The position numbers were made by a program, and so were the translations under genes. 53,225 bases of DNA from the IMG/VR virus record IMGVR_UViG_3300024433_000923, positions 1 to 53,225 of that record, one strand, 5' to 3'. Positions 2 to 53,225 of this stretch are shown one piece after another. Source of the DNA: a virus. The stretch's first letter is position 1, and the number at the start of each line of letters is the position of its first letter. Below the pieces are notes generated by a model that searched no databases, was not told the DNA's origin, and saw only the letters and a program-made list of their open reading frames with translations.

Positions 2-70
2 ATAATTATCGGACAAGTTACGGATTGCATTAGACATTACGATTCTTGCTTTAGGGGAGTAAACGAATGA
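2..70 (+). CDS. C-terminal end of an upstream protein (partial)
   Basis: An open frame runs from the left edge and reads ...IGQVTDCIRHYDSCFRGVNE before a TGA stop. The stop overlaps the ATG of the cupin gene (ATGA), the same coupling used repeatedly in this window, which supports it being the end of a real upstream gene of the same operon. Only 22 residues are visible, so no function can be given. Confidence 0.5.
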   Translation: MIIGQVTDCIRHYDSCFRGVNE

Positions 71-1972: not shown

Positions 1973-2808
1973 GAATAGCACTTTGTCTATCAGGTCTTAT
2001 TGGTAATGCCAAGGGAAAATCTGGCGATGCTTCTTCAGAACAATCTGTTTTAGATATTTCTTTTAAGTATTGGAAGAAACATGTTTTAGATAAAAATGAT
2101 GATATTGATGTTTTTATCCATACTTGGGATGTAGATCTTGAAGATAGAATTAAACAATTATTTGATCCTCTTCTTATTACAGTAGAAAAACAAAAAATTT
2201 TTGATATTCCTGATTATGTAGTTGGACATCCTGAACAAAGAAAACAAAACCATTATAGTAGATGGTATGGAAATAGAGAAGCTGTTGGTTTAAAAAGAGA
2301 GTATGAAGATTATTGTGATTTTAAATATGATATGGTTATGCTTTCTAGATTTGATGTAGCATGGCAAACCGATGTAATTTTTTCAAAATTTGATTCTTCT
2401 TGTTTTTATGTAGGAAATTGGTGTACGTTAAGAGATAAAAAAACAAATTTGAATTGTTTTAAAGATGGAAGAGGAGATCTTTATGAACGTTTGGAAACTG
2501 AACCTCTTTCTAATTTTAAACATTCACATTTTCCTATCAGAAGAGGAATGTTAGATCATTGGTTTTTCTCTCATTCTGAAAATATAGATAATTTTGCTGA
2601 ACTTTATAGCAATTTGGATGAATATTTAAAAGATCCAAAAGCATCTAGAGATCCTAATAAACCCGATAGTTCTTTAAATATTTGTAATCATCAATTGGTT
2701 TGTTATCATCTTCAAAAGCTTGGACTTTTTGATAAAGTGCGTTGTGTTTTTCATTCGTTTAGTGATTTTCCATTAACAAGATATAAATTTTTAGGATCCA
2801 AAATATGA
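1969..2808 (+). CDS. Putative glycosyltransferase-like protein, paralog 1
   Basis: A 279-residue soluble protein. It opens with a hydrophobic strand (MRIALCLSGLIGN), then DVFIHTWDVD, NHYSRWY, FKYDMVMLSRFD and HWFFSHSE. The pattern of an N-terminal strand, an FIHTWD segment and a central acidic SRFD motif matches uncharacterised GT-A-like enzymes often found in capsule and lipopolysaccharide loci; the acidic motif could bind Mn2+ and the nucleotide sugar, but this is inference. It starts inside an ATGA overlap with the preceding stop and is followed by a close paralog in the same arrangement. No signal peptide or membrane segment is seen. Confidence 0.55.
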   Translation: MRIALCLSGLIGNAKGKSGDASSEQSVLDISFKYWKKHVLDKNDDIDVFIHTWDVDLEDRIKQLFDPLLITVEKQKIFDIPDYVVGHPEQRKQNHYSRWYGNREAVGLKREYEDYCDFKYDMVMLSRFDVAWQTDVIFSKFDSSCFYVGNWCTLRDKKTNLNCFKDGRGDLYERLETEPLSNFKHSHFPIRRGMLDHWFFSHSENIDNFAELYSNLDEYLKDPKASRDPNKPDSSLNICNHQLVCYHLQKLGLFDKVRCVFHSFSDFPLTRYKFLGSKI

Positions 2809-3617
2809 AAACAGCATTGTGTTTATTCGGATTAGTCGGTAATATCAAAGGGAAAGCTGGTAAGCATTCTTCTGACAATGAACTTCTTGAACTTTGTTAT
2901 AAACATTATAAAGAACACATTTTAGACAAGAATGATATTGATGTATTTATTCACACTTGGGATATTCAATTTAAAGATAGAATTTTAGAATTATATAAAC
3001 CTAAAGATTCGATTTTTGAAAAACAAATTCAATTTAAAACTCCTGATTATATCAAGAGTAATAAGTTAAGAAAAAATAATCACTATAGTAGATGGTATAG
3101 TGCTTGGAAATCTGTATGTCTTAAATATCGGTTTGAAAGAATGTTTAAATTTAAATATGATATGGTTATGTCAAGTAGATTTGATCAAACTTGGGAAACT
3201 GATGTTGTATTTGAAAAGTTTGATCCACAATATTTTTACGCAGGACATTGGTGTGAATTATTTGACATGGTTGGTCGAGTTTTTAGTGCTGGACAAGGAC
3301 CGTTATATAAGTGGATAAAAGAAGGTAGAGATATATCTGATCTTAAACATTCGCATTATACTAAAGAAAATAAGGGATTAGTCGATCATTGGTTTTTTTC
3401 TAATTCAAAATATATGGATAAATTCCATACACTTTTTTTGCATTTGGATGAATATCTAAAAGACCCCGAAGCATCTAAAAATGGTAAAATTTCTAATCAT
3501 GCTTTGGCTCCTTATCATCTTAAAAAAATTGGATTGTGGGATAAACTCAAATTTGTATTCCATTTTTTCGATGATTTCCCATTAGCGCGAAGAAAATATT
3601 TTGGAGTGATAGAATGA
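2805..3617 (+). CDS. Putative glycosyltransferase-like protein, paralog 2
   Basis: 270 residues, clearly a duplicate of the gene just before it. The same blocks occur in the same order: ALCLFGLVGNIKGKAG, DVFIHTWD, NHYSRWY, FKYDMVMSSRFDQTWETD, DHWFFSNS, LDEYLKDPEAS and a C-terminal FPLARRKY. The SRFD acidic motif is kept in both copies, which suggests both remain active and may add successive or different sugars. It is coupled to its neighbours by ATGA overlaps at both ends. Family assignment is by resemblance only. Confidence 0.55.
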   Translation: MKTALCLFGLVGNIKGKAGKHSSDNELLELCYKHYKEHILDKNDIDVFIHTWDIQFKDRILELYKPKDSIFEKQIQFKTPDYIKSNKLRKNNHYSRWYSAWKSVCLKYRFERMFKFKYDMVMSSRFDQTWETDVVFEKFDPQYFYAGHWCELFDMVGRVFSAGQGPLYKWIKEGRDISDLKHSHYTKENKGLVDHWFFSNSKYMDKFHTLFLHLDEYLKDPEASKNGKISNHALAPYHLKKIGLWDKLKFVFHFFDDFPLARRKYFGVIE

Positions 3618-4168
3618 GTTTTAATAAAGAAATGATAATAGAAGCCATAGAATTAATTGATCCTAGATATGAACACGTTCTTGAATTTGGAGTATATAAA
3701 GGACGATCTATAAAAATTATTCGAGAAAATCTACCAAATTCTTTTAGAGTATTTGGTTTTGATTCTTTTGAAGGATTGCCAGAAGATTGGAAAGATTCTA
3801 AAAACAATCTTGTAGGAAAATGTAAAAAGGGATTTTTTTCTACTAATGGTAAAATTCCCGATATAAGAGGAGTAAAGTTTTTTAAAGGATGGTTTAAAGA
3901 TACAATTTCTGAATATAAAAAGATCGCTCAGAAAATTGCTTTTATCCATATAGATTCTGATTTGTATAGTTCTGCGAAAGAAATATTATGGGGATTAAAT
4001 GATTATATTGTTAAAGGGACCATTCTTCTTTTTGATGAATGGTATTATGATCATGATCCTAAATATAATGATCATGAAGAAAAAGCATTTTTTGAATGGT
4101 CAGAAAAATTTAAAAGAAGATATGAAATGTTTGCTGAATACGATGGTAAACAAATTGTGAGGATTTAA
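3614..4168 (+). CDS. TylF/macrocin-O-methyltransferase-type SAM methyltransferase
   Basis: 184 residues with the layout of the TylF-like class I SAM-dependent methyltransferases: LEFGVYKGRSIK (about 23-34) is the glycine-rich SAM-binding motif I, FGFDSFEGLPEDW follows the second strand, FIHIDSDLYSSAKEIL supplies the acidic metal site, and ILLFDEWYYDHDP the later Asp-containing strand. Family members methylate sugar hydroxyls, as in macrocin. Here it sits between sugar-transferase-like genes and a sulfotransferase fusion, so O-methylation of a sugar or glycan is the likely role. It starts in an ATGA overlap with the previous gene. Confidence 0.75.
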   Translation: MSFNKEMIIEAIELIDPRYEHVLEFGVYKGRSIKIIRENLPNSFRVFGFDSFEGLPEDWKDSKNNLVGKCKKGFFSTNGKIPDIRGVKFFKGWFKDTISEYKKIAQKIAFIHIDSDLYSSAKEILWGLNDYIVKGTILLFDEWYYDHDPKYNDHEEKAFFEWSEKFKRRYEMFAEYDGKQIVRI

Positions 4169-4170
4169 AA

Positions 4171-5475
4171 ATGATTAGATGTGATTACCCTAATTGTGGA
4201 TGTAAAAAAACTACTACTTTCAAATGGATTTCTCATGTTTTAAAAACAATTTATTTTGAAGTTCCTAAAGTAGCATCTACAAGTATACGAAAAGGATGTT
4301 TCGGTATTGATGTAAATGATCTAAAGAAAAATAATCCTTATGATTTTGAAGTATTTCGAGATTCCAATCTTGAAAAATATTCTGATTATTTTAAATTTAC
4401 AATTGTCCGAAATCCTTGGGACAGAATCGTATCTATTTGGAAAATGTATACAACACAGTCTTCTCGCAAAAAACAAATAAAAAAATTATTCAAAATAGAA
4501 GATCCTGCTAATCTTTCTTTCCTAGAATTTATTGAAAAAATGACAGAAAAGAGGAATCACCATTGGGAACAACAAATTGAATTTTTGCCTAATTTAAATG
4601 AATTAGATTACATAGGAAGATTTGAAAATCTTAGGGAAGCTTGGCATTTTATTTCTTATAAATTAGGAATAAATACAAAATTACAGAAATTAAATGTCAC
4701 AGATCATTACCATTATCATTATAGTGAATATTATGACAGAATAACAAAAGGAATTGTAGAGAAAGAATATGCGAAAGATTTTAAAATACTTAAATTCAAA
4801 TTTGAAGTGCTTTCTTACTGTGATAATTTTTCTAAAGAAAAATCTAATATTGCAGGATTAAAATATATTCCGACTCAGGAACCATATAGAAGTAATGGTT
4901 GTCAAATGATGAATATTCCTTCTTGGTTAGTAAGAAGAAAGGAAATGAGAAAAGATAGTTTTTCTGTAAGGAATAGAAAAATTTTATTTAAACGTATTAC
5001 TCCTGAAATGAAATGTATCTTAGAAATTGGCGTCAATAGATATGCAGAAAAATCTTCTACAAGTATTGTTTTTAAAGGTAAATCTGACGATTGTGTTTAC
5101 TTAGGAATTGATTTAATGGATAAATCTTATTTGGATAATCCTGAAAAGAATATATATACAATGAAATGCAATTCAAATTTAAAACAAAAGGTTATAGATA
5201 AATTAAATAGTTTAGGACAAGAACAGATAAATCTTCTTATTATTGATGGGGATCATTCAATCAATGGCGTTATAGGTGATTGGGGATTTACTAAATGGCT
5301 TGCTGAAGATGGGATTGTATTTTTACATGATACAAATGCACATACTGGTCCTATGCTTGTTTATGACGCTATAGATGAAACTATGTACAAAAAGAAGAAA
5401 CGTTGTACTGGAAGAAATGAAGATGGCAGTTTTAAAGATTGGGGAATTGGTGTTTGTAGGAAGATTAAAGAATAG
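4171..5475 (+). CDS. Sulfotransferase fused to a C-terminal SAM methyltransferase-like domain
   Basis: 434 residues. Residues about 20-235 resemble the carbohydrate sulfotransferase family: YFEVPKVASTSIRKG (28-42) is the 5'-phosphosulfate loop and FTIVRNPWDRIVSIWK (76-91) the 3'-phosphate-binding motif, with the characteristic RNPWDR. These enzymes move sulfate from PAPS to a hydroxyl. From about residue 280, CILEIGVNRY, VYLGIDLMD, LLIIDGDHS and GIVFLHDTNAH follow the strand order of a small-molecule methyltransferase (CmcI/TylF-like). The N-terminus has closely spaced cysteines (C4, C9, C11), possibly a metal site. It is the last gene of the plus-strand sugar operon and its end overlaps the convergent gene by 11 nt. 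Order and motifs are seen; the glycan acceptor is inferred. Confidence 0.75.
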   Translation: MIRCDYPNCGCKKTTTFKWISHVLKTIYFEVPKVASTSIRKGCFGIDVNDLKKNNPYDFEVFRDSNLEKYSDYFKFTIVRNPWDRIVSIWKMYTTQSSRKKQIKKLFKIEDPANLSFLEFIEKMTEKRNHHWEQQIEFLPNLNELDYIGRFENLREAWHFISYKLGINTKLQKLNVTDHYHYHYSEYYDRITKGIVEKEYAKDFKILKFKFEVLSYCDNFSKEKSNIAGLKYIPTQEPYRSNGCQMMNIPSWLVRRKEMRKDSFSVRNRKILFKRITPEMKCILEIGVNRYAEKSSTSIVFKGKSDDCVYLGIDLMDKSYLDNPEKNIYTMKCNSNLKQKVIDKLNSLGQEQINLLIIDGDHSINGVIGDWGFTKWLAEDGIVFLHDTNAHTGPMLVYDAIDETMYKKKKRCTGRNEDGSFKDWGIGVCRKIKE

Positions 5476-6403
5476 AAATTACATCTACAAATTTAAGCAT
5501 ATTACTTTTTCTATTCCCAATATAAGAAATTAATCTTTTTTGTAGATTTTTCGCTAATTTTTGGCGAAATTCATGATTTTTTATAAGATATTTTGTATAT
5601 TCTATAAGTTTTTCGGGTGTTCTTGCTAAAAGTGCAGTTTCCTTGTGTATAGCATAATCCCGGACCCCTCCAATATCCATACCTGCAATAGCACAACCAC
5701 AGAGACCAGCTTCCATTGGAGGAATATGTAAGCCTTCCGTCTGAGAAGTAAACATCCAAATATCACACTCATTATAGATCCAATTTAATTTTTCAGAATC
5801 AGGAGATCTGTAATAAGAACAAGTATTAAATTTTACATCATTCACTCCAAATGTTATGACTCTGATTTTTTCTGTTTTTCTAATTTCGTTTATAGTTCTT
5901 TTAAATAAATCAAATCTTTTATATCCTCTTTCGTGATACAATCCTCCGATAGTTATTCCTGTTCTTGCGAAATTACGAGAATAAAATATATCCAAATCTA
6001 AACCCGGATAAACAACAGGTGGATAAGAATTAAATCTTCCAATTCTATTACTAAGCCATCTTGCATTCGTAATAATTCTGATTTTTTTGCAAAGTTCTAA
6101 TATTTTTTCATCAGACTGAGACCAATTTTCCCAACCTCTTACGTACCAAATTTTCTTAGCTTTAGTTTTAAATTCCAACAATGGAGGAACTGAATTAATA
6201 CCAGTAGCTATTATAACATCTAAATCTTTAGAATATTCTTTTGTAATACGTGCTACACATTTAGACCATGTGTAATTGTATTTGTCTGCAACAAGATAGA
6301 CTTCATGTCCTAATTCTGTCAAAACATTTGCACAGGAAACAATAGTTTTTGTTCCACCATTGTTTCCATAACCACAGCCTAAAGCAGTGAAAGCAATTCT
6401 CAT
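5465..6403 (-). CDS. GT4-like glycosyltransferase
   Basis: 312 residues from the ATG at 6403, which forms an ATGA overlap with the upstream gene; a longer frame to a TTG at 6418 is less likely. The GT-B layout is visible: MRIAFTALGCGYGNNGGTKT with a glycine-rich N-terminal loop and GHEVYLVAD, then ITIGGLYHERGYKRFD at the start of the C-terminal Rossmann domain, and EGLHIPPMEAGLCGCAIAG, the E-x7-E region of GT4 retaining transferases. It is the last gene of the minus-strand operon. It probably transfers a sugar from an NDP donor; donor and acceptor are unknown. Confidence 0.72.
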   Translation of the reverse strand: MRIAFTALGCGYGNNGGTKTIVSCANVLTELGHEVYLVADKYNYTWSKCVARITKEYSKDLDVIIATGINSVPPLLEFKTKAKKIWYVRGWENWSQSDEKILELCKKIRIITNARWLSNRIGRFNSYPPVVYPGLDLDIFYSRNFARTGITIGGLYHERGYKRFDLFKRTINEIRKTEKIRVITFGVNDVKFNTCSYYRSPDSEKLNWIYNECDIWMFTSQTEGLHIPPMEAGLCGCAIAGMDIGGVRDYAIHKETALLARTPEKLIEYTKYLIKNHEFRQKLAKNLQKRLISYIGNRKSNMLKFVDVISIL

Positions 6404-7368
6404 TTGATTATATCCCAAAGATGTTTTGCAGCATGATTGATAGAAAGATTTTTCCAGTAATAATTATAAGAATTGTATTGATCGTAATGTTTAAGGATAT
6501 GATAAATGCCATTTAATATACCTAATGTATTAAGTTGACAAGATATTCCAGTTTCAGGAGTAATATATTTTTCAAACCAAATATTCATGTCATTGGTCAC
6601 TATTACAGGAAGACCACATACAAGAAATTCTGGTAAAACTCTTGGACAAGAATCGTATTCTGTGCTGCATATCAAACCCATTTTACATTGACTCATAAAA
6701 GCAGAAAGATTTGCTCGTCTTTGCCATCCTACTGATTTGATATTATGTTTTTTGGCAAGCTGTTTATCTCTATCATTTAACATTCCTATATGAAGAAGAG
6801 AATATCTAGAATCTTTGAAAGTTTCAAAAGTTAGTTTGATTCTTTTTATATCTTTGTCAGTAGAATTTGCCATAAAACAAACATCGTAATTTTTCTTTCC
6901 AAATCGAAACGAAGGATGAGGATAAAAGATATTTTCTGCTGCGGGTTTAATAAATAATTTAGAACCAGGAACTTGTTTTTGTTGTTTGACACTATCGACT
7001 AAAATAATATCCCAATTGCCGTCAGACGGTTTAAAACGATTACCGGCACCATAGTATACCCATTTTGCACTTTGAATCGTCTGACGAGCCTTTAAACAAT
7101 CAGAGAACCCACCTCTAGCAATAACAACATCGAAATCGGTAACAGGCAGTTTATTTAAATCAGGAACCCATCTTTCGACGAATCTAGGACTAACAACTTT
7201 GATTTTTTTATAATCTCCTCCCCAATACCATAGTTCTACTTCATTAAAATATTTACACATTCTTTCAGCAAGGATAGTCCACATGTCTTCGCATTGCCAT
7301 ATGTGATCGTATTTAAGCCTTTCGGGCTTAAAAGTAGGAACTTTACCACGAAGGAAAAGAAGTTTCAC
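6400..7368 (-). CDS. GT4-like (GT-B fold) glycosyltransferase
   Basis: 322 residues. The C-terminal half has the GT-B nucleotide-sugar region: YDVCFMANSTDKDIKR, KSVGWQRRANLSAFMSQC, then SCPRVLPEFLVCGLPVIVT, which corresponds to the conserved E-x-x-x-x-G-x-P-V segment of GT4/GT1 transferases. The N-terminal half is more divergent (MKLLFLRGKVPTFKPERL...). Soluble, with no membrane segment. It is linked by a 4-nt overlap to the GT downstream and to the dehydrogenase upstream, so the three are co-transcribed and probably build the same sugar chain. Confidence 0.65.
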   Translation of the reverse strand: MKLLFLRGKVPTFKPERLKYDHIWQCEDMWTILAERMCKYFNEVELWYWGGDYKKIKVVSPRFVERWVPDLNKLPVTDFDVVIARGGFSDCLKARQTIQSAKWVYYGAGNRFKPSDGNWDIILVDSVKQQKQVPGSKLFIKPAAENIFYPHPSFRFGKKNYDVCFMANSTDKDIKRIKLTFETFKDSRYSLLHIGMLNDRDKQLAKKHNIKSVGWQRRANLSAFMSQCKMGLICSTEYDSCPRVLPEFLVCGLPVIVTNDMNIWFEKYITPETGISCQLNTLGILNGIYHILKHYDQYNSYNYYWKNLSINHAAKHLWDIIK

Positions 7369-8204
7369 AGAATCGCTCCCTCGATATCTTCCCAGTCACG
7401 TTTTTTACGAAGACGTAAATTGTTTTCCCAAGCGGATTCAAGGAAAGAAGTATCAATATCTAAATCTTTGAATAATCCTATGATTGATCGCATATCTTTA
7501 GGAAGACATTTGCCACCAAATCCTCTAGCATTGGAAACTTTCAAATGTTCAGCAGAATACATAGGATCGGCAGTAACGATTTCTACAAGTTTTTCGTAAT
7601 CTACACCAAGTTTATCAAATCCTTGTTTCATCACATTTGCGTATATGACTTTGATTGCTCCTAAGGAATTTGCAAAATATTTTGTAGCTTCAGCAGTAAC
7701 AGTATCACATCTATATATTGGAATATCTTTGTTAATATTTTCTAAAGATCTTATGTATTCATTGACCTTACAAGGATATTCTGCCCCTATAACATGACGT
7801 TTTGGATTTATGGCGTCAAACATCCAAATAGATTCAGTAAGAAATTCAGGAGAAAAATAGATATTAGAATAGCCAGTACTTCTGATTAATTCTTTAGTTG
7901 TACCAGGAGTAACAGAAGATTTGATAATAATATGTTTTAAATGTTTGGTTTTGATTTTAACTATATCTCCTACTATTTGTTCTACAAGATGAACACTTAT
8001 TCTAGGATTATTATTTATATCTACACAAGGAGTAGGAACACAAACAAAAATAAATTTGGATTCTTTTACAACTTCTTCAAAGCTATAAGTATCAGGATTT
8101 TTAGGATCATAAAATTTTATTGAAATATTTTTTCGATGATGTTTAAAGAAAAGAGCTGTTGCTTTTCCAACAATGCCATAACCTATGATTCCAATATTAT
8201 TCAT
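7365..8204 (-). CDS. UDP-sugar dehydrogenase (UDP-glucose / UDP-ManNAc type), short form
   Basis: 279 residues of the nucleotide-sugar dehydrogenase family, which oxidise a sugar C6 alcohol to a uronic acid with two NAD+. IGIIGYGIVGKA (4-15) is the NAD-binding glycine loop; FVCVPTP (53-59), IIKSSVTPGTT (93-103) and FSPEFLTES (117-125) are family blocks; EATKYFANS (172-180) carries the conserved Lys and Asn; GFGGKCLPKD (228-237) carries the catalytic cysteine Cys233. It stops shortly after the central domain, so the C-terminal UDP-binding domain of normal enzymes (about 390-450 residues) is largely missing. Catalytic residues are intact, but how it binds UDP is unclear. It likely makes a uronic-acid donor for the neighbouring transferases. 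Confidence 0.8.
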   Translation of the reverse strand: MNNIGIIGYGIVGKATALFFKHHRKNISIKFYDPKNPDTYSFEEVVKESKFIFVCVPTPCVDINNNPRISVHLVEQIVGDIVKIKTKHLKHIIIKSSVTPGTTKELIRSTGYSNIYFSPEFLTESIWMFDAINPKRHVIGAEYPCKVNEYIRSLENINKDIPIYRCDTVTAEATKYFANSLGAIKVIYANVMKQGFDKLGVDYEKLVEIVTADPMYSAEHLKVSNARGFGGKCLPKDMRSIIGLFKDLDIDTSFLESAWENNLRLRKKRDWEDIEGAIL

Positions 8205-8206
8205 TT

Positions 8207-9145
8207 TTAAACCTTTGTAATAGGATGAAAATGCATTCTGGCTTTACCTACCTGTTTTTTAATCTTCCAATACTTACCCCACTCACAGAGACAAAATTCC
8301 ATATCTTGAAGTGTCAATCGTGGACCTTTGAATTTAATGCCAAGATGTTCAAAATGTTCATCTTGTTCATCGGTAAGTTCCGACATTGCATCTGTGTAGG
8401 AAATACATTCCCTATTAGGATATATTGTTTCTATTCCAAATTCGCATCCTGGTCCTGGATTAGCAAAAGTATCACGAACTTTGTCAGGGAATACTCCAGC
8501 ATAGACCATATCTATACAGACTTCGTATGAAGTAAATCCTCCGAATCCATATTGTTTAAGAAAAAATTTAAAGCATCCTTCCCAATCTAAAATTTTTCTA
8601 AACTTTTTAATTTCTTTCCAGATATACTTCCAATTCTTTTTGAGTTTGGTGACGATAGTAATGAAATTAGCAATACGAGACTGCTTAAGATTTGATTGAC
8701 AAGTAATGTGCGCATTTGTAAAGACTCTAAATCCTTTTGATTTGTAGGAATTAAGGCGTTTTTCGTATTTTTCGGGATTAAATTTTTTTCTGAGAGGAAT
8801 TCCACAGGCTTCAAAGGTTTCGATATTGTTGTTAATCCTATAAAAAATGCAAGCCCAAACTTTATCTTGAAGTCTCGGATACTTATCGTTTTCAATAATA
8901 TTTTTAATCATCCACTGACTGCCACGATCAAGAATACGATAAACATTAGTAAATTTATATTTTTCTAATATTGGGTCTTTAGTCCACGGAGGAGGTTTTT
9001 TCTTTATAAATCGACGTATATAAATGTTATGACGTTTATGAAGGAATCTGAAAAACATATCAAGATTTTTCTGACAAACTTCAGGATAATCTTCAGGTTT
9101 TGGAAGAGCAGATAAAGATTTAGAAGATTCTCTTTTTAGAACCAT
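8207..9145 (-). CDS. Thymine-hypermodification protein of the 5-hmdU DNA kinase helical / glutamyl-putrescinyl-thymine pyrophosphorylase family
   Basis: 312 residues. Three blocks match the helical family described in phages with hypermodified thymine: PPPWTKDPILEKYKFTNVYR (51-70), GFGGFTSYEVCIDM followed by FANPGPGCEFGIE (about 201-240), and a late QDMEFCLCEWGKYWK (about 280-295). Family members are found with 5-hydroxymethyl-dU DNA kinases or as the enzymes that replace the activated pyrophosphate group on thymine with an amine. No P-loop kinase motif is seen here, so the pyrophosphorylase-like (transferase) subgroup is the better fit. It lies inside a glycosyltransferase/sugar operon, so the added group could be a sugar-related moiety; that is inference. 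Recognition of the family is fairly firm, the exact reaction is not. Confidence 0.7.
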   Translation of the reverse strand: MVLKRESSKSLSALPKPEDYPEVCQKNLDMFFRFLHKRHNIYIRRFIKKKPPPWTKDPILEKYKFTNVYRILDRGSQWMIKNIIENDKYPRLQDKVWACIFYRINNNIETFEACGIPLRKKFNPEKYEKRLNSYKSKGFRVFTNAHITCQSNLKQSRIANFITIVTKLKKNWKYIWKEIKKFRKILDWEGCFKFFLKQYGFGGFTSYEVCIDMVYAGVFPDKVRDTFANPGPGCEFGIETIYPNRECISYTDAMSELTDEQDEHFEHLGIKFKGPRLTLQDMEFCLCEWGKYWKIKKQVGKARMHFHPITKV

Positions 9146-10071
9146 TATTCACCCCTTGTAAAACCGTACTGATATTGTTGGAGAATTTTGTCAACTTTGT
9201 CATCTTCTATATCGCAATGCCATTGTTTTTTAAAAGCATTTCTTGACTCATGAAAATGTAATAACAATATACCTTCGACGTTAACCTTTTTACGATAATC
9301 AATTAAACGCTTTTTAAGTGATGGAAGTAAATTTCTAAGAAGCTGAATATGTTTACCTAATTGACAATCAAAATTATATTCGCTGATTTTAAGAGAAATT
9401 CTTATATCACCAAAGAGAATAATGCGCATTAAAAAATCTGTTACTGCATATGTAGGATGTTTAAAATTAAGATTAAACATTCCTATCATATCAAAGACTT
9501 TCTTGTGAACAAGAAAACAATTAAACCCTGAAGCAATTAACATTGATCCTTTCATTACTTGTTCACAAAATATATTAAACCAATTATATTTCCACATAAC
9601 ATCGTATCCACTAATTAAAATCCAGTCTGTATTAGACGCTGTAATAATAGCATTACAAAATTTTGAAAAATTACAATTTTCAAAATCTATATCCGTATCT
9701 ATTATATTTAAATCATGTATTGTTTGAAATGATGACTCTTTATCTAAAAATTTTTCCAATTTTTCTATTTCTTCTTTTTTAAAAAAAGAAAATTCAAAAA
9801 CTTTATTGTTAAGCATTTTATAAAGTTTAATAGGATCAAAATTATTACTAAGAATATTTACATCTGTATTGGAAGGAAGTGTATTAAGAAGAGAAATAAC
9901 TGATAAATAAGTCACTTCTGTTGGCATAAAATAATTCAGAATATTGCAAGTGATTGGTATCATACTATAATTAATATGACAGAGTTGATCATGAAAAATA
10001 TTTAATATTTTTAAATATTTTTTATTATATGAATTTCTTCCAACATTACGAGACGCTAGGGCGTCGCGCAC
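9145..10071 (-). CDS. Divergent GT-A-like glycosyltransferase (uncertain)
   Basis: 308 residues. It has a GT2-like rhythm: TYLSVISLLNTLPSNTDVNI near the N-terminus, NTDWILISGYDVMW at the point where GT-A enzymes carry their DXD strand, then IASGFNCFLVHKKVFDMIGMF and a YAVTDFLMRI segment, similar to the acceptor region of GT2 enzymes. A clear DXD is absent (SGYD instead), so activity is uncertain. The longest frame starts at a GTG that lies inside the hairpin at 10050-10093 and has no clear Shine-Dalgarno, so the true start may be further in. It is the first gene of the minus-strand operon. Confidence 0.45.
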   Translation of the reverse strand: MRDALASRNVGRNSYNKKYLKILNIFHDQLCHINYSMIPITCNILNYFMPTEVTYLSVISLLNTLPSNTDVNILSNNFDPIKLYKMLNNKVFEFSFFKKEEIEKLEKFLDKESSFQTIHDLNIIDTDIDFENCNFSKFCNAIITASNTDWILISGYDVMWKYNWFNIFCEQVMKGSMLIASGFNCFLVHKKVFDMIGMFNLNFKHPTYAVTDFLMRIILFGDIRISLKISEYNFDCQLGKHIQLLRNLLPSLKKRLIDYRKKVNVEGILLLHFHESRNAFKKQWHCDIEDDKVDKILQQYQYGFTRGE

Positions 10072-44820: not shown

Positions 44821-46650
44821 ATGGCTAACGTTGGAATTTATACTGGATTACTTAAAGGTGGAAGATTACAAATATATGTAAGGTCTGAATCTAGAAAATT
44901 ATTTGGACGAGCAATAAGAACTCTTTCCCGTATTCCTGTTATTTCCTATAATAAAAAAAGAAAATATCACGAATCAACAATTTATTACTATGACTTTATC
45001 AAAGAACTTGTTATAAATAATGGATGGAATTTCTTTTTTACTAAGAAACTTAAGAGATATTATCGGAAATTTAAGGAGAAATTAGAACGTGTAAAAGAAG
45101 CAAGGAAGGATAAAACTTTTCAATCAAAATATTGGACAAAAGACCCTGAAAATCAGATACTTTCTTTTCAAGCACAAGCTGTAAACGTATGTTATGAAGC
45201 TAAGAAATATCTTATTGGTGATGATATGGGTTTGGGTAAAACTCCTGAAGCTTTAGGAGTAATGTGTAAAGCTTTTGAAGATGGGTATAAAAGGACATTA
45301 ATAGTTGTTCTAAATAGATTAAAATTCCAGTGGCGGAATGAAATAGAAAAGTTTACAACATTCAGAGAAAGCAATGGAGATATATCAATTGTAGATTCTA
45401 CGGTTGGAATAAAATGTGAAAAAGGCATTAAACTTAATTTAAGAAGTAGAGAATGTAAAAATTGTAAATCAAAAAAGAAATGTAAACGATTAAGGGATGA
45501 CCCTCGCAGAAGACGTAAGTACCAATTTAGTAAAGGGAAAATTGTAATATGTAATTATGAAATTCTTGATAGATCGTTGGAAATTATTAAAAAAAGTGGA
45601 TTTGATATTTTTATTTTAGATGAAGCATCTAAGATGAAAAATCGAAGTACAAAATTGACAAAGGCTTTATTGAAAATAAGGAGAGAATTAAGACATAACG
45701 CAATTTGTATACCTATGTCTGGGACTTTTATTGAAAATAGATTGGAAGAATTATGGGCACCTTTTTATTTTACTGATCCAAGAATATTAGGAGAATTTTA
45801 TAATTTTAAAAACCATTATTTGATATTTGATTATTGGGGAAATACAGTAGGATATAAGAATGAAAAAAAATTGAAAAAAATAATAAAAGATCACATAATC
45901 AGAAGACCTATTGAAAAAGTTTGGAAAGATAGACCGCCGTTGATTTCTGTTGTGCGGACTTGTGAGATGACAATGATGCAAAGATCTATCTATGATGATG
46001 CAAGGGAAGGAATATTAAAACAGCTTAATGATTTAGCTTCTCAAAAGAAAATAAATAGAGCTGATATATTACCATTGATGAATTATCTTATTCAGATTTG
46101 TGATACGACTGAAACACAGGATCCAAGTATTAGAGAAAGTGGGAAAATTGATGTGTTAAAAGATATTATTGAAAATGAAATTCATCCAAGACACAAGGTT
46201 GTTATTTTCAGTTTTTATGCAAACAAAGTTATTCCTATATTGAAGCGAGAATTAAAATCTTTTGGAAAATCAGTGACAGTAGTCGGAGGCTTGAAGCCAA
46301 AAATATTTGAAAAAAGAAAAAGTAAATTTATTGAAAATGAAAATATACGTTTTGCTATCTGTTCAGATTCAATGGCGTATGGTCAGAATATGCAGGTTGC
46401 AAGCTATGTGATTAATTTTGATTTGTTATGGAATCCTGCCAAAATGGAACAAAGACTTAGGCGCGTTTATAGGATAGGACAAAAGAAACCTGTTACTGTT
46501 ATTGATCTTGTAACAACTAATACTCTGGAAGATAAAATGTTAGAAGTGTTAGGAGAACGTAGGGAACTTTTTGATAAGATTTTAGGAGCTAAAGCTAAAA
46601 AGACCAAAAAACCTAGTGTAGACCAGCTTTTAGGTATTTTGCGCAATTAG
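44821..46650 (+). CDS. SNF2/Rad54-type helicase-like ATPase
   Basis: 609 residues with the SNF2 motif set: GDDMGLGKTPEA (about 133-144, motif I), IVVLNRLKFQWRNEIEKF (Ia), ILDEASKMKNRST (about 263-275, DEAS in place of DEAH), CIPMSGTFIENRLEELW (III), and in the second lobe FAICSDSMAYGQNMQ and RLRRVYRIGQKKPVTVID (about 544-561, motif VI with the QxxRxxR arginine region). A short Cys/Lys-rich insert CKNCKSKKKCKR lies between motifs Ia and II. It is a double-stranded DNA translocase, probably in replication, recombination or transcription of phage DNA. It starts the replication module. Confidence 0.9.
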   Translation: MANVGIYTGLLKGGRLQIYVRSESRKLFGRAIRTLSRIPVISYNKKRKYHESTIYYYDFIKELVINNGWNFFFTKKLKRYYRKFKEKLERVKEARKDKTFQSKYWTKDPENQILSFQAQAVNVCYEAKKYLIGDDMGLGKTPEALGVMCKAFEDGYKRTLIVVLNRLKFQWRNEIEKFTTFRESNGDISIVDSTVGIKCEKGIKLNLRSRECKNCKSKKKCKRLRDDPRRRRKYQFSKGKIVICNYEILDRSLEIIKKSGFDIFILDEASKMKNRSTKLTKALLKIRRELRHNAICIPMSGTFIENRLEELWAPFYFTDPRILGEFYNFKNHYLIFDYWGNTVGYKNEKKLKKIIKDHIIRRPIEKVWKDRPPLISVVRTCEMTMMQRSIYDDAREGILKQLNDLASQKKINRADILPLMNYLIQICDTTETQDPSIRESGKIDVLKDIIENEIHPRHKVVIFSFYANKVIPILKRELKSFGKSVTVVGGLKPKIFEKRKSKFIENENIRFAICSDSMAYGQNMQVASYVINFDLLWNPAKMEQRLRRVYRIGQKKPVTVIDLVTTNTLEDKMLEVLGERRELFDKILGAKAKKTKKPSVDQLLGILRN

Positions 46651-46724
46651 GCCAAAATTTGGATCGTTGTAATGGCTTGAGGACAATCAGTTTAGGTGAG
46701 GGTAGGTGTAAGGTAGGGGCTAAA

Positions 46725-47654
46725 ATGGCGAATAACGAATCTTATTTCCAGTTGTTTACTTTCGACGAAAAGATTTTGAATAAATTGCAGACAATTGATA
46801 GCGTGAAATGTTTACGATTTGTGATTGCATTGATAAGAAATGGAATTACAGAAGAATCGAAAATTATGGAGTTGTTGAAATGTTCAAAAGCTGATCTTTT
46901 CAGAGTTGTTAAAAAACTTATTGCAGCGGATATAATTATTAGATGGCGTGATAAAAATACCAGTGTTCCTTCTTATACTCTGAATTTTGAATTTTTTGAT
47001 ATTACTGAATCTTGTAAACAATGTAGATATAGAAAAACGGAAGTTAAAGATATTGGATCTTTAAAATTTAGATATTTGAATTGTTCTTTGAATGGAACTG
47101 TAAAGTGTATTCACAATTATCAAAGAGAAAATTATAATATTTGTAAACTTTTATCCGTAACACATGATAAAGTAAGTGCAGAAGTTTTGGATAGAAAAAA
47201 TAGATATAAATATAATGAAGATAAAGATATAGAAGAATGGAATATAAGAGATTTTGTGGAATTTTATAGAGAAGAGTGTATCGAAAATTTTCCCACAATG
47301 ATTATGGATAATAATAATATTATACGATCACATATGCGGAGTATCGTTGAGAGTTTTAAAAAGCATTTTAAAGGTAAGTGGCAGAGGTTTTTGAAGTTAT
47401 ATATGAATAAACAGATAGATGAAGCTAAGAAAGAAAGAAGGTATTTACCTTCTATTCAATTAGCAAGAGGAGTTGTAATAGCAAATTTTCTTAGAAGTGT
47501 AAAGAAAAAGGGATATACAGAAGTTGGATTTTGTAAACAGAAAAATTTGTATTGTTCCTATTGTGACACTGATAGCAATATTTGTAAATTGAAAAAAGAT
47601 AAATTAAAATGCACAAGAAACATTAGAAAAAAGATGAAAAAGTTGTATAACTAA
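46725..47654 (+). CDS. Winged-helix protein with Cys-rich zinc-type motifs (replication-associated)
   Basis: 309 residues from the ATG at 46725 (GTAGGGGC upstream); an upstream TTG at 46659 is in frame but unlikely. Residues about 25-75 (KCLRFVIALIRNGITEESKI, ELLKCSKADLFRVVKKLIAA) form a winged-helix-like unit. Then cysteine pairs (CKQCRYRK near 97, with more at about 118 and 127) and a C-terminal set CKQKNLYCSYCDTDSNICK could each bind zinc. It abuts the DnaB-like helicase gene, so a helicase loader, primase-type factor or origin-binding role is suggested by context. No primase motif is visible. Confidence 0.5.
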   Translation: MANNESYFQLFTFDEKILNKLQTIDSVKCLRFVIALIRNGITEESKIMELLKCSKADLFRVVKKLIAADIIIRWRDKNTSVPSYTLNFEFFDITESCKQCRYRKTEVKDIGSLKFRYLNCSLNGTVKCIHNYQRENYNICKLLSVTHDKVSAEVLDRKNRYKYNEDKDIEEWNIRDFVEFYREECIENFPTMIMDNNNIIRSHMRSIVESFKKHFKGKWQRFLKLYMNKQIDEAKKERRYLPSIQLARGVVIANFLRSVKKKGYTEVGFCKQKNLYCSYCDTDSNICKLKKDKLKCTRNIRKKMKKLYN

Positions 47655-49078
47655 TGGCGAAGAAAAAATCTTTTAAAGATTCATACAAGCGTAAAAGGGC
47701 TTCAATGCGTGATAGTCCTTTTTCACGTATTTTAGATGAGAAGAAGTTCTTAGGTGGTCTTATAAAATTTCCAAAAGTTGTGGGAGTTATAGTAAATCAA
47801 TTTGATAGTAGATGTTTAAGTAGCGACAAATTGAAATGGCTTTATGAAGAAATAGAAGAATTTTTTAATAAGACGGGATATGTTTTAGATGATAAAGGCT
47901 TTAATGAATATGTCGGTTCTTTAAAAGTAAAGAAAAGAAAGATATATAAAAGACTTTGGAAGTCAATTAAGAAAATTTCTAAGAAAATTTCCGAAGCTTC
48001 TACATTGGTTATAAAAGATAATTTAGAAAAATTATATGATGCGCGATTAATGATTTATAATGCTAATCATGTTGCAGATATTTTAGATAAGGCTGATGTT
48101 GATGGAATAGATGTCGTTGAAAAAGCAAAGAAACAATATGAAAAAATAAACGATGAATTAAGTAGAGGTAGAACAGTTATAAAAGTTGTAGATGCCATTA
48201 ATTCTTATGATGATTTTAAAGAGTATCATCAAAAGGCTCAAGCTAATCCTAAACGTTATAAAGGCGTTCCAACAGGGATGCGACCACTTGATAAAAAGAT
48301 AGGTGGGTTAAGAGATTCAGAATCTGGCATGGTATTGACAAGAACAGGGGTAGGTAAATCAATACTATTAATGGAATTTGCTGCATATTGTTATCAATTT
48401 TATGGAGATGTTATATATGTTACGATAGAAATGCCTGAAATTCAGCTTAGACAGAGATTGTATTGTCATCTTTCTAGAATAAAATATAAATATTTTAGGA
48501 ATTTTGATTTAAATAAAAAGCATTGGAGAAGACTTAATAAGAAAATTAAATCAAGATTTGAAAATCATCCTTTTAAATTTAATATCATTGACATTCCTGG
48601 TTCAGGGACAGTTGCCGATATTAAAAATAGGATTGAAACAATATTAAATCATAATCCTGGCGTAAGATTGATTTGTGTTGATTATTTAAATATCATGCGT
48701 TGTAGTACAGGAGCTATAGCTGTTGAATGGCCTAGACAGATTGAAATAGCTATTGATCTTAAACAGATGTATAGATATTTCGATAAGCCTGGATGGTCTG
48801 CTGCACAGTTAAAAGCCGATACTGAGGGGAAGGAAACTAAAATACGTATAAGTGATATGGCTTTATCAAAAAATATTCCTGACCATATAGATATAGGTGT
48901 GACAGCACAAGATACTCCTGAAGAAAATATATTTAGAATAGGATTTATTAAAGCTAGAGATTTTAAGGGGGAAGAATTTTATGTTAAAGGTGATAGAGAT
49001 AGGATGACTTTTAATACCGTTAGTAAAAAAGAATCCGAAAAATATTATGAACAAGAACAAGGAGGATTAAAGGTATGA
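47654..49078 (+). CDS. dnaB: Replicative DNA helicase, DnaB-like
   Basis: 474 residues. An N-terminal domain (FLGGLIKFPKVVGVIVNQFD) of DnaB type is followed by GVPTGMRPLDKKIGGLRDSE and the RecA core: Walker A RTGVGKSILLMEFA (about 230-243), VIYVTIEMPEIQLRQRL (motif 1a region), Walker B VRLICVDYLNIMR and a late segment GWSAAQLKADTEGKE with the sensor residues. This is the phage replicative fork helicase. It overlaps the winged-helix gene by one base and the next gene by 4 nt, so the replication genes are translated together. Confidence 0.88.
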   Translation: MAKKKSFKDSYKRKRASMRDSPFSRILDEKKFLGGLIKFPKVVGVIVNQFDSRCLSSDKLKWLYEEIEEFFNKTGYVLDDKGFNEYVGSLKVKKRKIYKRLWKSIKKISKKISEASTLVIKDNLEKLYDARLMIYNANHVADILDKADVDGIDVVEKAKKQYEKINDELSRGRTVIKVVDAINSYDDFKEYHQKAQANPKRYKGVPTGMRPLDKKIGGLRDSESGMVLTRTGVGKSILLMEFAAYCYQFYGDVIYVTIEMPEIQLRQRLYCHLSRIKYKYFRNFDLNKKHWRRLNKKIKSRFENHPFKFNIIDIPGSGTVADIKNRIETILNHNPGVRLICVDYLNIMRCSTGAIAVEWPRQIEIAIDLKQMYRYFDKPGWSAAQLKADTEGKETKIRISDMALSKNIPDHIDIGVTAQDTPEENIFRIGFIKARDFKGEEFYVKGDRDRMTFNTVSKKESEKYYEQEQGGLKV

Positions 49079-50193: not shown

Positions 50194-50500
50194 TACTGAT
50201 TCAGAATTTATTAGTGAACTTGCTAGAGAAATGAAAGTAAGTTTACCAAAAGCAAAAAGGTTCATTAAAATATTTTCTGAATGCATTAAACGAGTGCTTG
50301 TTGTAAATGGTACATTAAATATTAGGAAACTAGGTTTATTTTATTTAAAGAAAAGAAAAAATAGTATTGCTAGAAATATAAGAACAGGCGAAGTTTTTAA
50401 GATTCCGTTGACAATGAGAATAATTTTTAAACCTGCTCTTTCTTTGAAACGTTCCGCTAATGAAAGAGTTAGAAAAATTCGTGATGAAAAACTTATTTAA
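50180..50500 (+). CDS. HU/IHF-family DNA-binding protein
   Basis: 106 residues. The HU shape is clear: an N-terminal helical half (DSEFISELAREMKVSLPKAK) and the arm region GTLNIRKLGLFYLKKRKNSIARNIRTGEVFKIP, matching the HU phrase GxxxxRNPxTGExIxIP, and then RIIFKPALSLK. HU-family proteins bend and compact DNA. It overlaps both neighbours (ATG inside the previous gene, end 16-40 nt into the polymerase frame). Likely a replication or packaging architectural protein. Confidence 0.85.
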   Translation: MALYNTDSEFISELAREMKVSLPKAKRFIKIFSECIKRVLVVNGTLNIRKLGLFYLKKRKNSIARNIRTGEVFKIPLTMRIIFKPALSLKRSANERVRKIRDEKLI

Positions 50501-53081
50501 TAATCTTCACGCACATAGTCACTATAGTATAGGAGATGCTACTCTTCACATTGATAAATATATAGAAAAATGTAAAAAATTAGGAAGTAATGCTGTAGCT
50601 TTGACAGAGCATGGAAATTTAGCTTCTGCGTATGAATTACACAAAGAATGTAAAAAAAGAGAAATAAAACCTATTCTTGGTATAGAAGTATATATGGTAG
50701 ATAAATATGGTACAGAAGCTGCTGAAACTCCTTATAGTTATTATCATGTTGTTTTACTTTGTAAAAATGAAACAGGTTGGAAGAATCTAAAGAAACTTCA
50801 CAGCGCATCGTGGCAACACGGTTACTTACGTCGGCCTAGAATAAGTCAGGGAACGCTACAGTCGTTCTCGGACGGCTTAATAGTGCTTACTGCATGTTTG
50901 GGCGGGGTTGTAGGCAAACTATTGTTAGGGATCGATCCTTACTACAAAGAATTATCTACAAAGAAGTGTTTAAAAGTATTAAAAAAAAGATTGAAATTTT
51001 TTATAAATACATTTGGAGATGATTTTTATTATGAAATGCAATTAAATGATCTTGATGGACAAAATATTGTCAATAAATATATTTTGGGACAAAAAGGAAA
51101 GAAAGTAATAACGAATGATATACATTATCTTAGGAAGATGGACTGGGAAATACATGACATTGTTAGATGCCGTGCGTGGAGGAAAACTCTTAAAGATGAG
51201 AATAATGGTATTTACCCGACACATCAATTGTATGTTAAGGGAATTAAATCTCTCCGAAGAGCGAAAGAAAAATGGCATGATTATATATCGGACAAAGAAT
51301 TTTTAAAAGCTATGAAAGCGACTGAAGAAATAGCAGAAAAAGTTGAAGAATATCCTTTAGTTCCTAAGAAAAGCACACTTCCAAAATACGGTAAGGGTGA
51401 CAGCATGGAAACCCTTACTAAACTTTGCAAAAAGGGATATAAAAAAAGGTTGACCGTTGACCAACAAAAATCTATTGTTTATAAAAAAAGATTGAAACGT
51501 GAATTAAAAGTTATTAAGAAGATTGGGTTTCCTGATTATTTTTTGTTTGTATGGAATGTAGTTAGAAAATGTAAGAAAAAAAATATAATAGTTGGACCTG
51601 GACGTGGATCAGTTTGTGGAAGTTTGGCGGCTTATCTTCTGAATATTACACAAATAGATCCTATTAGATTTAATTTAATGTTTGAAAGATTTTTGAATGA
51701 AGACAGACTTTCTATGCCTGATATTGATATGGATTTTAGTAAGGCTAGACGTGACGATGTTAAGAAGATTATGGAACAAATGTATGGGGCAGATAAATTA
51801 GCTCACATAGCTGCATATGCAAAGTGGAAACCAAGGGGAGTTATAACAGATGTAGGACGAGTATTGGGATATGATTATTTTAGTGTGCTTAAGAAACAAA
51901 CCAAGTTGGTAGATAGTAAAGTAGAAAAATGGAAAGAATTACCTGATGAAATAAAACCTTTTTTGAAAAAGAATAAAACTTTAACGGATAGAGCTAAACG
52001 ATTAATGGAAACTGTAAATCAACAAGGAGTTCATGCAAGTGGAATTATTGTAACACCATCTGAGTTAGAAGAATGGTTGCCTACTGCCTATACTGTTGAT
52101 AAAAATGATGAAGAAAGACGAAGAGTAAAGGTATCAGAATGGGACATGTATGCTTTGGAAGATTTGGATCTATTAAAATTTGATAGATTAGGGTTGACAA
52201 CTCTTGATGTTATCCAACGGACTGTAGAATTAGTTAATAGAGATGGAGAGAAAATAAAAGATATTGATGAAGTCTGTTTGAATGATTTAGAAAATAAAAA
52301 AGTGTATGAACTTATTAGAACTCAGGAGTTACAAGGATTATTTCAGATAGAGACTTCGCAGGGAATGGCAAGACTTATAAGCGACATGAAACCGAAGCGA
52401 TTCAATGATATTGTGTTGATTATTAGTTTATTTAGAACTGCTGTGTTGAAAGCAGGGATGCATACGGAATACGTAAAACGGAGAAATTGGGTTAAGAAAA
52501 AAGAAGAGTTTAAAATTAAAATGATTCATCCTATGTTAAAGGATATATTGAAGGAAACATATGGTGTATTAATATTTCAAGAACAAGTGATGGCAATTGC
52601 AAATAAAATGGGAAATATGACGTTACGAGAAGCTGATAATTTTAGAAAAGCTATTAAGTTGAAAGATTCTGAAAAATTTGGTGTATGGAAAGAAAAGTTC
52701 TTAGAAGGTGCAAAGAAGAATAATGTAAAGGATAAAATAGCCAAAAAGGTTTGGGATTGGATGTATAAGTTTTCGGGCTACGGATTCAATGTGTGTTTAG
52801 CTCCCGACAATACTGTGTTAAAGGATTCTGGTGAGTATATGTTATTATCAGAAGTTAAAATAGGTGATAGAATTAAGGCATATAATGTTGATTCTGATTC
52901 TTTCTATTATGATGAAGTTATAGATGTAATAGATCAAGGAAAACAAGAAGTTTATGAAGTACAATTGAATAATGGGAGTACAATTAAATGTACTATGGAC
53001 CATAGGTTTTTATGTAAAGATAAACTGAAGCATCCGTTATGGGAAATTTTGAAAAAGAAACTAGACATTATTTGTGAATGA
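50484..53081 (+). CDS. dnaE: DNA polymerase III alpha subunit (DnaE type), N-terminal part, ending in an intein N-half
   Basis: 865 residues from the ATG at 50484; an upstream ATG at 50460 in frame is possible. The PHP domain opens NNLHAHSHYSIGDATL (6-21, with the HxHxxxS metal site) and GIEVYMVD. The polymerase core has GPGRGSVCGSLAAYLLN (about 371), SMPDIDMDFSKARRDDV with the paired Asp (about 411-418), VHASGIIVTPSE and LKFDRLGLTTLDV with the third Asp (about 565). It reaches GYGFN, a family motif, then turns into intein sequence and stops. The rest of the polymerase must follow outside the window. It is a C-family replicase and would replicate the phage genome with the DnaB-like helicase. 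Confidence 0.9.
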   Translation: MKNLFNNLHAHSHYSIGDATLHIDKYIEKCKKLGSNAVALTEHGNLASAYELHKECKKREIKPILGIEVYMVDKYGTEAAETPYSYYHVVLLCKNETGWKNLKKLHSASWQHGYLRRPRISQGTLQSFSDGLIVLTACLGGVVGKLLLGIDPYYKELSTKKCLKVLKKRLKFFINTFGDDFYYEMQLNDLDGQNIVNKYILGQKGKKVITNDIHYLRKMDWEIHDIVRCRAWRKTLKDENNGIYPTHQLYVKGIKSLRRAKEKWHDYISDKEFLKAMKATEEIAEKVEEYPLVPKKSTLPKYGKGDSMETLTKLCKKGYKKRLTVDQQKSIVYKKRLKRELKVIKKIGFPDYFLFVWNVVRKCKKKNIIVGPGRGSVCGSLAAYLLNITQIDPIRFNLMFERFLNEDRLSMPDIDMDFSKARRDDVKKIMEQMYGADKLAHIAAYAKWKPRGVITDVGRVLGYDYFSVLKKQTKLVDSKVEKWKELPDEIKPFLKKNKTLTDRAKRLMETVNQQGVHASGIIVTPSELEEWLPTAYTVDKNDEERRRVKVSEWDMYALEDLDLLKFDRLGLTTLDVIQRTVELVNRDGEKIKDIDEVCLNDLENKKVYELIRTQELQGLFQIETSQGMARLISDMKPKRFNDIVLIISLFRTAVLKAGMHTEYVKRRNWVKKKEEFKIKMIHPMLKDILKETYGVLIFQEQVMAIANKMGNMTLREADNFRKAIKLKDSEKFGVWKEKFLEGAKKNNVKDKIAKKVWDWMYKFSGYGFNVCLAPDNTVLKDSGEYMLLSEVKIGDRIKAYNVDSDSFYYDEVIDVIDQGKQEVYEVQLNNGSTIKCTMDHRFLCKDKLKHPLWEILKKKLDIICE
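52794..53081 (+). other. N-terminal half of a split intein (inserted after YGFNV of DnaE)
   Basis: 95 residues from Cys771 (TGT at 52794). The opening CLAPDNTVL is intein block A with the nucleophilic Cys1; IGDRIKAYNVDSD, VIDQGKQEVYEVQLNNGSTI and the block B motif CTMDHRFL (TxxH) follow in the usual order. The end, EILKKKLDIICE, ends with a stop where the cyanobacterial DnaE split inteins also end their N-half (about 102 residues). Net charge is acidic. The visible intein half that follows is basic, as is typical of a split pair. Confidence 0.88.
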
Positions 53082-53225
53082 TTACTTTATGGGAAGATAA
53101 AAATTTTAGATGGGAAATTTGGGAGACAGTTTTGGTTAAAACTGCAAAAATTGTTGGATTAAGAAGAATTGGTAAAGTAAAATGTTTGGATTTGAAAATG
53201 AAATCCAAGCATCACAATTTTATAT
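53078..53225 (+). CDS. C-terminal intein half, presumably joined to the rest of DnaE (partial)
   Basis: 49 residues visible from the ATG at 53078, which overlaps the TGA of the previous ORF (ATGA), in the -1 frame. After a linker (MITLWEDKNFRWEIWETVLV) it reads KIVGLRRIGKVKCLDLKMKS then KHHNFI, matching the end block of DnaE C-inteins (GKxxVYDIxVExxHNF). The sequence stops at the edge before the expected block G with terminal HN/SN. The next residue should be the Ser of the DnaE motif following GFN. Basic, complementary to the acidic N-half. Confidence 0.8.
   Translation, partial: MITLWEDKNFRWEIWETVLVKTAKIVGLRRIGKVKCLDLKMKSKHHNFI

What the first reader, a model, noticed from the sequence alone, without database searches (positions are those of the whole stretch)
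52780..53225. Split DnaE intein with its two halves in overlapping adjacent ORFs
Seen: DnaE reaches GYGFNV, continues as a 95-residue intein N-half with block A Cys771 and TMDH, and stops. The stop overlaps (ATGA) a new start in the -1 frame whose product carries a C-intein motif (VKCLDLKMKSKHHNFI). Known: the cyanobacterial DnaE split intein sits three residues upstream in the same polymerase motif, with halves far apart in the genome; phage split inteins usually have an endonuclease gene between halves. Here the halves are adjacent and coupled, with no endonuclease, at a site that would use Ser as the +1 residue. This could be a split intein at an early stage, or one kept for stoichiometry. 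A frameshift mutation of a formerly continuous intein is an alternative.
Basis: partly seen in the sequence, partly recalled or inferred. Interest (0 to 1): 0.93.

Follow-up and report, generated by a model that had tools for sequence, protein, structure and literature searches.

The report
Phage polymerase intein, split, endonuclease lost
A bacterial virus appears to make its DNA polymerase as two proteins carrying the two halves of a self-splicing intein; most relatives keep a mobile DNA-cutting gene between the halves, and here that gene seems to have been deleted, leaving a short scar.

Summary
The split is real. A second assembly (L002's record, 109.6 kb) matches the window's last 8,730 bases with one mismatch and runs past its end: the downstream ORF completes the C-intein (HHNF...TSN), then Ser+1 (SHAVSYAF) and the DnaE C-terminus. 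The two ORFs cover TIGR00594 positions 1-749 and 749-1022. The closest DnaE relative found (45%) lacks the intein and is seamless there.

The interpretation changes. Of 28 distinct viral loci with a split intein at this site, 24 have an ORF between the halves or fused to the N-half (21 endonuclease-like); the window, L077, L161 and relic-bearing L158 do not. N-halves stop at the same place in 25 of 28. A start codon sits at the conserved C-half start in 28 of 28; in the window it is TTG 53132, with a good Shine-Dalgarno site. The ATGA overlap is therefore probably incidental. Read in the relatives' endonuclease phase, the window's 50-nt spacer resembles an endonuclease tail (12 of 20,000 random sites score as high); L077, L161 and L158 show clearer scars.

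Most likely this is a 'fractured' polymerase gene after loss of its homing endonuclease, not an intein beginning to split. Splicing itself is untested.

The parts
50484..52793 (+). DnaE (DNA polymerase III alpha) N-extein; an upstream ATG at 50460 is also possible
   Evidence: TIGR00594 1-749, PHP, DNA_pol3_alpha and finger domains
52794..53078 (+). N-intein, 95 aa, Cys1; stop codon 53079-53081
   Evidence: TIGR01445 and PF14890; 36-44% identical to four same-site N-regions incl. flanking extein; profile matches DnaE intein structures such as 2keq, E 1.5e-12
52992..53003 (+). block B, TMDH
   Evidence: sequence; T and H conserved in the alignment
53078..53081 (+). ATGA: ATG of the long reading of ORF2 overlaps the N-half stop; probably incidental
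   Evidence: anti-SD pairing +0.5 kcal/mol, weakest of the 16 ATGA-coupled G001 genes, itself included
53082..53131 (+). 50-nt spacer between the N-half stop and the likely C-half start
53087..53162 (+). probable 3' scar of a deleted Vsr-like homing endonuclease: LWE motif, then, after a change of frame, IKILDGKFGRQFWLKLQKLLD* in the phase relatives use; its last part overlaps C-half coding sequence
   Evidence: controls and weaknesses given in the text
53121..53125 (+). GGGAG, Shine-Dalgarno-like, 6 nt before TTG 53132
   Evidence: -7.3 kcal/mol; stronger than 77% of 118 G001 ORF starts and 97.5% of 3,000 random sites
53132..53225 (+). likely start (TTG) of the C-half: 39-aa C-intein, cut by the window's end; in L002 it runs on through SN and SHAVSYAF to the stop at 9752
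53183..53221 (+). block F and first part of block G: CLDLKMKSKHHNF
   Evidence: sequence and alignment

Best explanation
dnaE of this tailed phage is a fractured gene that has lost its endonuclease. Two proteins are made: DnaE-N with a 95-aa N-intein, and a 39-aa C-intein with DnaE-C, started most likely at TTG 53132. By the class 1 pathway, the intein halves associate, fold and join ...GYGFNV to SHAVSYAF..., giving one polymerase of about 1,100 residues. An ancestor carried a homing endonuclease ORF between the halves, as most relatives do. A deletion removed it except for its last codons, which contain the ribosome-binding site and start of the C-half and so could not be lost. Shown here: the anatomy, the family, the conserved stop and start positions, and loss of the endonuclease in relatives. 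Inferred: trans-splicing, and endonuclease loss in this particular lineage.
For: Complete C-intein, Ser+1 and DnaE-C in L002. Seamless intein-free relative L021. Same-site split inteins with LAGLIDADG (L006, L043; Pfam) or Vsr-like (L042; DUF559 and PHROG endonucleases) ORFs between the halves. N-half stop 25-30 aa after the block-B His in 25 of 28, and a start codon within -1 to +3 codons of the C profile start in 28 of 28. SD at TTG 53132. Spacer in endonuclease phase: best score 30 (against L085), reached by 12 of 20,000 random G001 sites and 23 of 5,000 dinucleotide shuffles. Clear scars elsewhere: L158 keeps a broken endonuclease tail, L077 reads ISDGTFKEDLKCKLLK where L088's intact ORF has INDGSFKEDLKCKLLE, and L161 has the same with a stop. 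No Vsr-like endonuclease elsewhere in G001 (best E 0.015).
Against: No splicing assay. The scar is short: the mean score over all 13 relatives is not unusual (reached by 670 of 20,000 random sites and 654 of 5,000 shuffles; another frame of the same stretch gives nearly the same mean, 12.77 against 13.08). It needs a change of frame, and it was found after earlier scar tests of mine on another motif and on DNA (77 and 82 of 20,000; 295 of 20,000; 19 of 1,000). In the intein tree the window groups (94/88, fork open) with LAGLIDADG-type split and contiguous loci, while the scar resembles Vsr-like ORFs of another group.
Confidence: 0.78

Rival explanations
1. A formerly continuous mini-intein was broken recently by a small frameshift, and the gene is damaged.
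For: The halves are adjacent and in different frames; continuous mini-inteins occur at this site (L080, L093, L117, L177).
Against: Two assemblies agree without a gap. The N-half stop and a good ribosome-binding site plus start codon both lie where split relatives have them. Both exteins are intact to profile ends.
Confidence: 0.08
2. The ATGA overlap is the true junction: ORF2 starts at ATG 53078 by translational coupling and the C-intein is 57 aa.
For: ATGA overlaps are common in this phage (16 of 100 pairs); the AceL NrdHF C-intein has 48 aa (PMC7891396, passages).
Against: ATG 53078 has no SD (+0.5), TTG 53132 has a strong one (-7.3); 28 of 28 split loci have a start codon at the place of TTG 53132, although some start codon within five codons would arise by chance fairly often.
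Confidence: 0.15
3. Programmed -1 frameshifting makes one continuous intein-containing protein.
For: ORF2 is in the -1 frame.
Against: A TGA in the ORF2 frame lies directly before its ATG (53075-53077), so the shift would have to happen on the last sense codon, and no slippery heptamer is there (read).
Confidence: 0.02
4. The halves no longer splice and act as a two-subunit polymerase.
For: Not excluded by any search; genes in pieces without splicing are reported for a phage ribonucleotide reductase (PMC10448857, passage).
Against: Block A Cys, block B T and H, block F Asp, the HHNF motif, terminal Asn and Ser+1 are all kept.
Confidence: 0.06

Closest known systems
Fractured genes with phage split inteins (Dassa et al. 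2009; recalled and seen as cited, paper not held); examples: AceL NrdHF with a GIY-YIG ORF between the halves (PMC7891396, passages) and phage MIJ3 PolB with an HNH ORF (PMC6892783, passages)
   Same: Phage replication or nucleotide-metabolism gene, adjacent N and C genes, canonical split point, about 95 + 40 aa intein halves.
   Different: No endonuclease ORF between the halves; only a probable 3' scar.
Cyanobacterial split DnaE intein (Ssp, Npu)
   Same: Same host protein, related N-intein (2keq E 1.5e-12 with profile A3), SN before the +1 residue.
   Different: Inserted four residues downstream (V|S instead of Y|C), Ser+1, halves adjacent rather than far apart in the genome (the last point recalled; also PMC7765530, passage).
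Continuous DnaE mini-inteins of phages at the same site (L080, L093, L117, L177 here)
   Same: Same site, no endonuclease.
   Different: One ORF.
Homing-cycle model of endonuclease loss after fixation (PMC1654191; start of abstract in the listing)
   Same: Endonuclease lost, splicing part kept.
   Different: That model as seen concerns introns and inteins in general; here the intein stays split after the loss.

Membership tests
Split intein (class 1) | Block A Cys1 and block B T..H in an N-half that ends in a stop codon | tested here: met
   CLAPDNTV..., CTMDH, stop 53079-53081; TIGR01445 and PF14890 above cut-off
Split intein (class 1) | C-half with block F, HN-containing block G, terminal Asn and Cys/Ser/Thr +1 | tested here: met
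   CLDLKMKSKHHNFICEGLVTSN then S in L002. Pfam, NCBIfam and PDB sequence searches give no separate C-intein hit
Split intein (class 1) | Exteins are the two parts of one protein, meeting at the junction | tested here: met
   TIGR00594 1-749 and 749-1022; L021 continuous there
Split intein (class 1) | Trans-splicing activity | not testable with these tools
   needs co-expression
Fractured gene | Split intein halves encoded by neighbouring genes in a phage | tested here: met
   tailed-phage genes nearby: TerL, DnaB, UvsX-like, dUTPase
Fractured gene | Homing endonuclease ORF between the halves | tested here: not met
   50-57 nt only; probable scar
Cyanobacterial DnaE split intein allele | Insertion between Y and CFN, Cys+1 | tested here: not met
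   insertion after GYGFNV, Ser+1

The most novel reading that the evidence does not exclude
One insertion site in phage DnaE shows a whole life cycle of inteins: a continuous intein whose homing endonuclease is overprinted in a second frame (L119, L151, L182), then a split intein with the endonuclease between the halves, then endonuclease relics (L158, L161, L077, window), then split or re-fused endonuclease-free inteins. A stop in the intein frame of the overprinted form would by itself split the intein, because the endonuclease's end already overlaps the start of the C-part in the same phase. That would be a concrete route by which split inteins arise and stay split.
Probability: 0.35. Interest if true: 0.8.

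Novelty: new variant of a known kind. Interest (0 to 1): 0.6.

Why it matters
How split inteins arise, and why they remain split once the selfish endonuclease has gone, is open. This site offers intact, relic-bearing and endonuclease-free split forms next to continuous ones, in the same protein at the same residue, so the order of steps can be tested by trees and by splicing assays. The window's pair, and L077 and L161, are also candidate natural split inteins with Ser+1 and a 39-aa C-part, of practical use if active.

Tried and rejected
Programmed frameshifting: rejected on sequence. Circular continuation at the window's start: no dnaE there. Cellular relatives: genome-contig scan with A3, 21 pattern matches, none confirmed. 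Named phage isolates with this intein: tblastn with the N-region and the C-half gave weak matches only; three records opened showed no same-site split intein. My first scar tests used another motif and plain DNA. They gave 77 and 82 of 20,000 random sites, 295 of 20,000 shuffles, 1 of 142 ORF upstreams, 6 of 3,156 in-frame sites, and for DNA 19 of 1,000 shuffles and 5 of 142 gene upstreams. They also showed a phase conflict (2 mod 3 in 13 of 13 relatives, 0 in the window), which led to the phase-based test. Rows dropped: L120, L144, L124 (other sites) and one L135 pair (another gene) before the count of 28; seven pairs too short for the tree, and L120, L144, L124 again (46 to 39 to 36 rows). 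One search returned the best 80 of 147 loci, so the family is undersampled.

Full report
WHAT IS THERE. The window is an IMG/VR viral record of 53,225 bases that ends inside dnaE. ORF1 (ATG 50460 or 50484) encodes DnaE up to GYGFNV and a 95-aa N-intein, and stops at 53079-53081; ORF2 opens at ATG 53078 and is cut by the window's end. The search for related loci returned L002, a 109,578-base contig that matches the last 8,730 bases with one mismatch. Its record G001 matches the window in two blocks with 7 and 2 mismatches and no gap, and its ends share 123 identical bases, which suggests a circular genome. In L002, ORF2 completes the C-intein, ends it in TSN, and continues SHAVSYAF to a stop at 9752. 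TIGR00594 is covered 1-749 by ORF1 and 749-1022 by ORF2. L021, the most similar DnaE found apart from L002 (45%), reads AGYGFNISHATAYG without an insert. The phage has TerL, a DnaB-like helicase, a UvsX-like recombinase and a dUTPase; its host is unknown.

THE FAMILY. Scans with ORF1, the N-region alone and with two, then five N-regions, and with five C-halves gave 46 distinct N/C pairs. After dropping three loci at other sites and one pair in another gene, 28 are split. Between the halves, or fused to the N-half, 24 of the 28 carry an ORF. 13 are Vsr-like: L042 by Pfam DUF559 (E 3.1e-4) and PHROG 559 (E 3e-15), L085 by a home-made profile, the other 11 by alignment with L042. 6 are LAGLIDADG-like: L006 and L043 by Pfam, L115, L150, L167 and L171 by eye. 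2 are NUMOD4-HNH domains fused to the N-half: L147 by Pfam, L157 by eye. 3 are unassigned (L090, L092, L116). Four have no intact ORF: the window/L002, L077, L161 and L158. Continuous inteins at the site also occur, short (L080, L093, L117, L177) or with an endonuclease. The genome-contig scan confirmed no cellular relative.

WHERE THE HALVES END AND BEGIN. In 25 of 28 split loci the N-half stops 25-30 residues after the block-B His (window 25). In 28 of 28 a start codon lies within -1 to +3 codons of the C-profile's first position (ATG 20, TTG 5, GTG 3). In the window this is TTG 53132. Anti-SD pairing is -7.3 kcal/mol there (stronger than 77% of 118 G001 ORF starts and 97.5% of 3,000 random sites) and +0.5 at ATG 53078 (weakest of the 16 ATGA-coupled starts). 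The ATGA overlap is thus real but probably not the junction in use.

THE SCAR. In 13 of 13 Vsr-like loci (12 intact ORFs and the L158 relic) the endonuclease's end is in the same phase relative to the C-half. In that phase the window's spacer and the start of its C-half read GKIKILDGKFGRQFWLKLQKLLD*, beside L085's WEIEINDGRFREQLICELQKLNL. Counting only the 14 codons that end at the TTG, the best score is 30 (L085), reached by 12 of 20,000 random G001 sites and 23 of 5,000 dinucleotide shuffles. Against this: the mean over 13 relatives is ordinary (670 of 20,000; 654 of 5,000), another frame of the same stretch has nearly the same mean (12.77 against 13.08) though a maximum of only 16, the match requires a change of frame after the WE motif, and it came after other tests. 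Scars in relatives are clearer. L158 keeps a broken endonuclease tail. L077 reads ISDGTFKEDLKCKLLK where L088 has INDGSFKEDLKCKLLE, and L161 the same with a stop. The retained end holds the SD and start of the C-half, which would explain why deletions stop there (inference).

HISTORY. On a 36-row intein tree the endonuclease-free loci need three changes and split versus continuous six (direction not told). The AU test rejects one clade of all four (p 9.6e-5) and window + L158 (p 8e-4), but not window + L077 + L161 (p 0.075). The groups were named after the tree was seen. So at least two losses are supported; three are likely. The window groups with L006, L115, L167, L117, L114 and L187 (94/88, open fork).

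HOW IT WORKS. Most likely both halves are translated from one mRNA, associate and trans-splice to one polymerase (class 1 pathway, from general knowledge; splicing not tested). Once split, a phage can lose the endonuclease by any deletion that spares the C-half start, but re-fusion needs an in-frame junction, so the split state should persist (inference).

KNOWN OR NEW. Fractured genes with split inteins are known (Dassa 2009, not held; passages of PMC7891396 and PMC6892783). Nine searches of the open library listed no paper whose title or visible abstract describes this DnaE site or endonuclease scars between split-intein genes; full texts were not read beyond passages. I rate it a new variant of a known kind.

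SIDE RESULT. In 7 of 9 continuous loci examined an endonuclease-like ORF lies in a second frame of the stretch that the intein frame reads through. Synonymous shuffles of that ORF leave the intein frame open in 0 of 2,000 for six loci and 14 of 2,000 for L028, and all seven have the phase seen in the split loci. HNH is supported by Pfam for L012 and L018; L017 and L028 are by eye. L119, L151 and L182 have no Pfam match above cut-off and only weak profile matches. L012, L017 and L018 may sit a few residues from the site. Out-of-frame HNH ORFs are known in a phage methylase insertion that is not an intein (PMC11855218, passages).

Noticed in passing
L119 3018-4070; L151 3264-4127; L182 3102-4097; L012 8675-9148; L017 8498-9061; L018 8588-9211; L028 8708-9232: Endonuclease-like ORFs overprinted in a second frame inside continuous DnaE inteins; intein frame stays open where synonymous shuffles almost never do.
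   Followed up: partly
L158 3800-4022: Broken relic of a Vsr-like endonuclease between split DnaE intein halves.
   Followed up: partly
L077 4325-4360; L161 3992-4027: Split DnaE inteins with only 27 nt between N-half stop and C-half start, reading as the 3' end of the endonuclease.
   Followed up: yes
L147 3162-4022; L157 3147-4022: N-half of the split intein continues into an HNH endonuclease (NUMOD4-HNH by Pfam in L147) while the C-half is a separate, touching ORF.
   Followed up: partly
L120 2339-4315; L144 1513-4363: Viral contigs with a split DnaE intein at the cyanobacterial site (Y|CFNKSH); the ORFs between the halves (427 aa in L120) do not look like endonucleases by eye.
   Followed up: no
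G001 46562-48847 (L066): Continuous intein in an ORF that looks like thymidylate synthase in the same phage, with an HNH-like stretch by eye.
   Followed up: no
L006 5968-6894 and 6879-8546; L025, L027, L037 near the same residue: DnaE is broken a second time near residues 281-311: overlapping ORFs in L006, a gap in the match in L025, an insert of about 1.6 kb in L027 and L037.
   Followed up: no
L052 4590-6889; L059 4752-6960: ORFs that look like a clamp-loader ATPase split by intein halves with another ORF between them.
   Followed up: no
L124 2526-4339: Split DnaE intein inserted two residues further on (FNKSH then C), with a LAGLIDADG-like ORF between the halves.
   Followed up: no
window 67-10071: Run of genes that by eye look like sugar-nucleotide enzymes and glycosyltransferases next to the terminase.
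   Followed up: no
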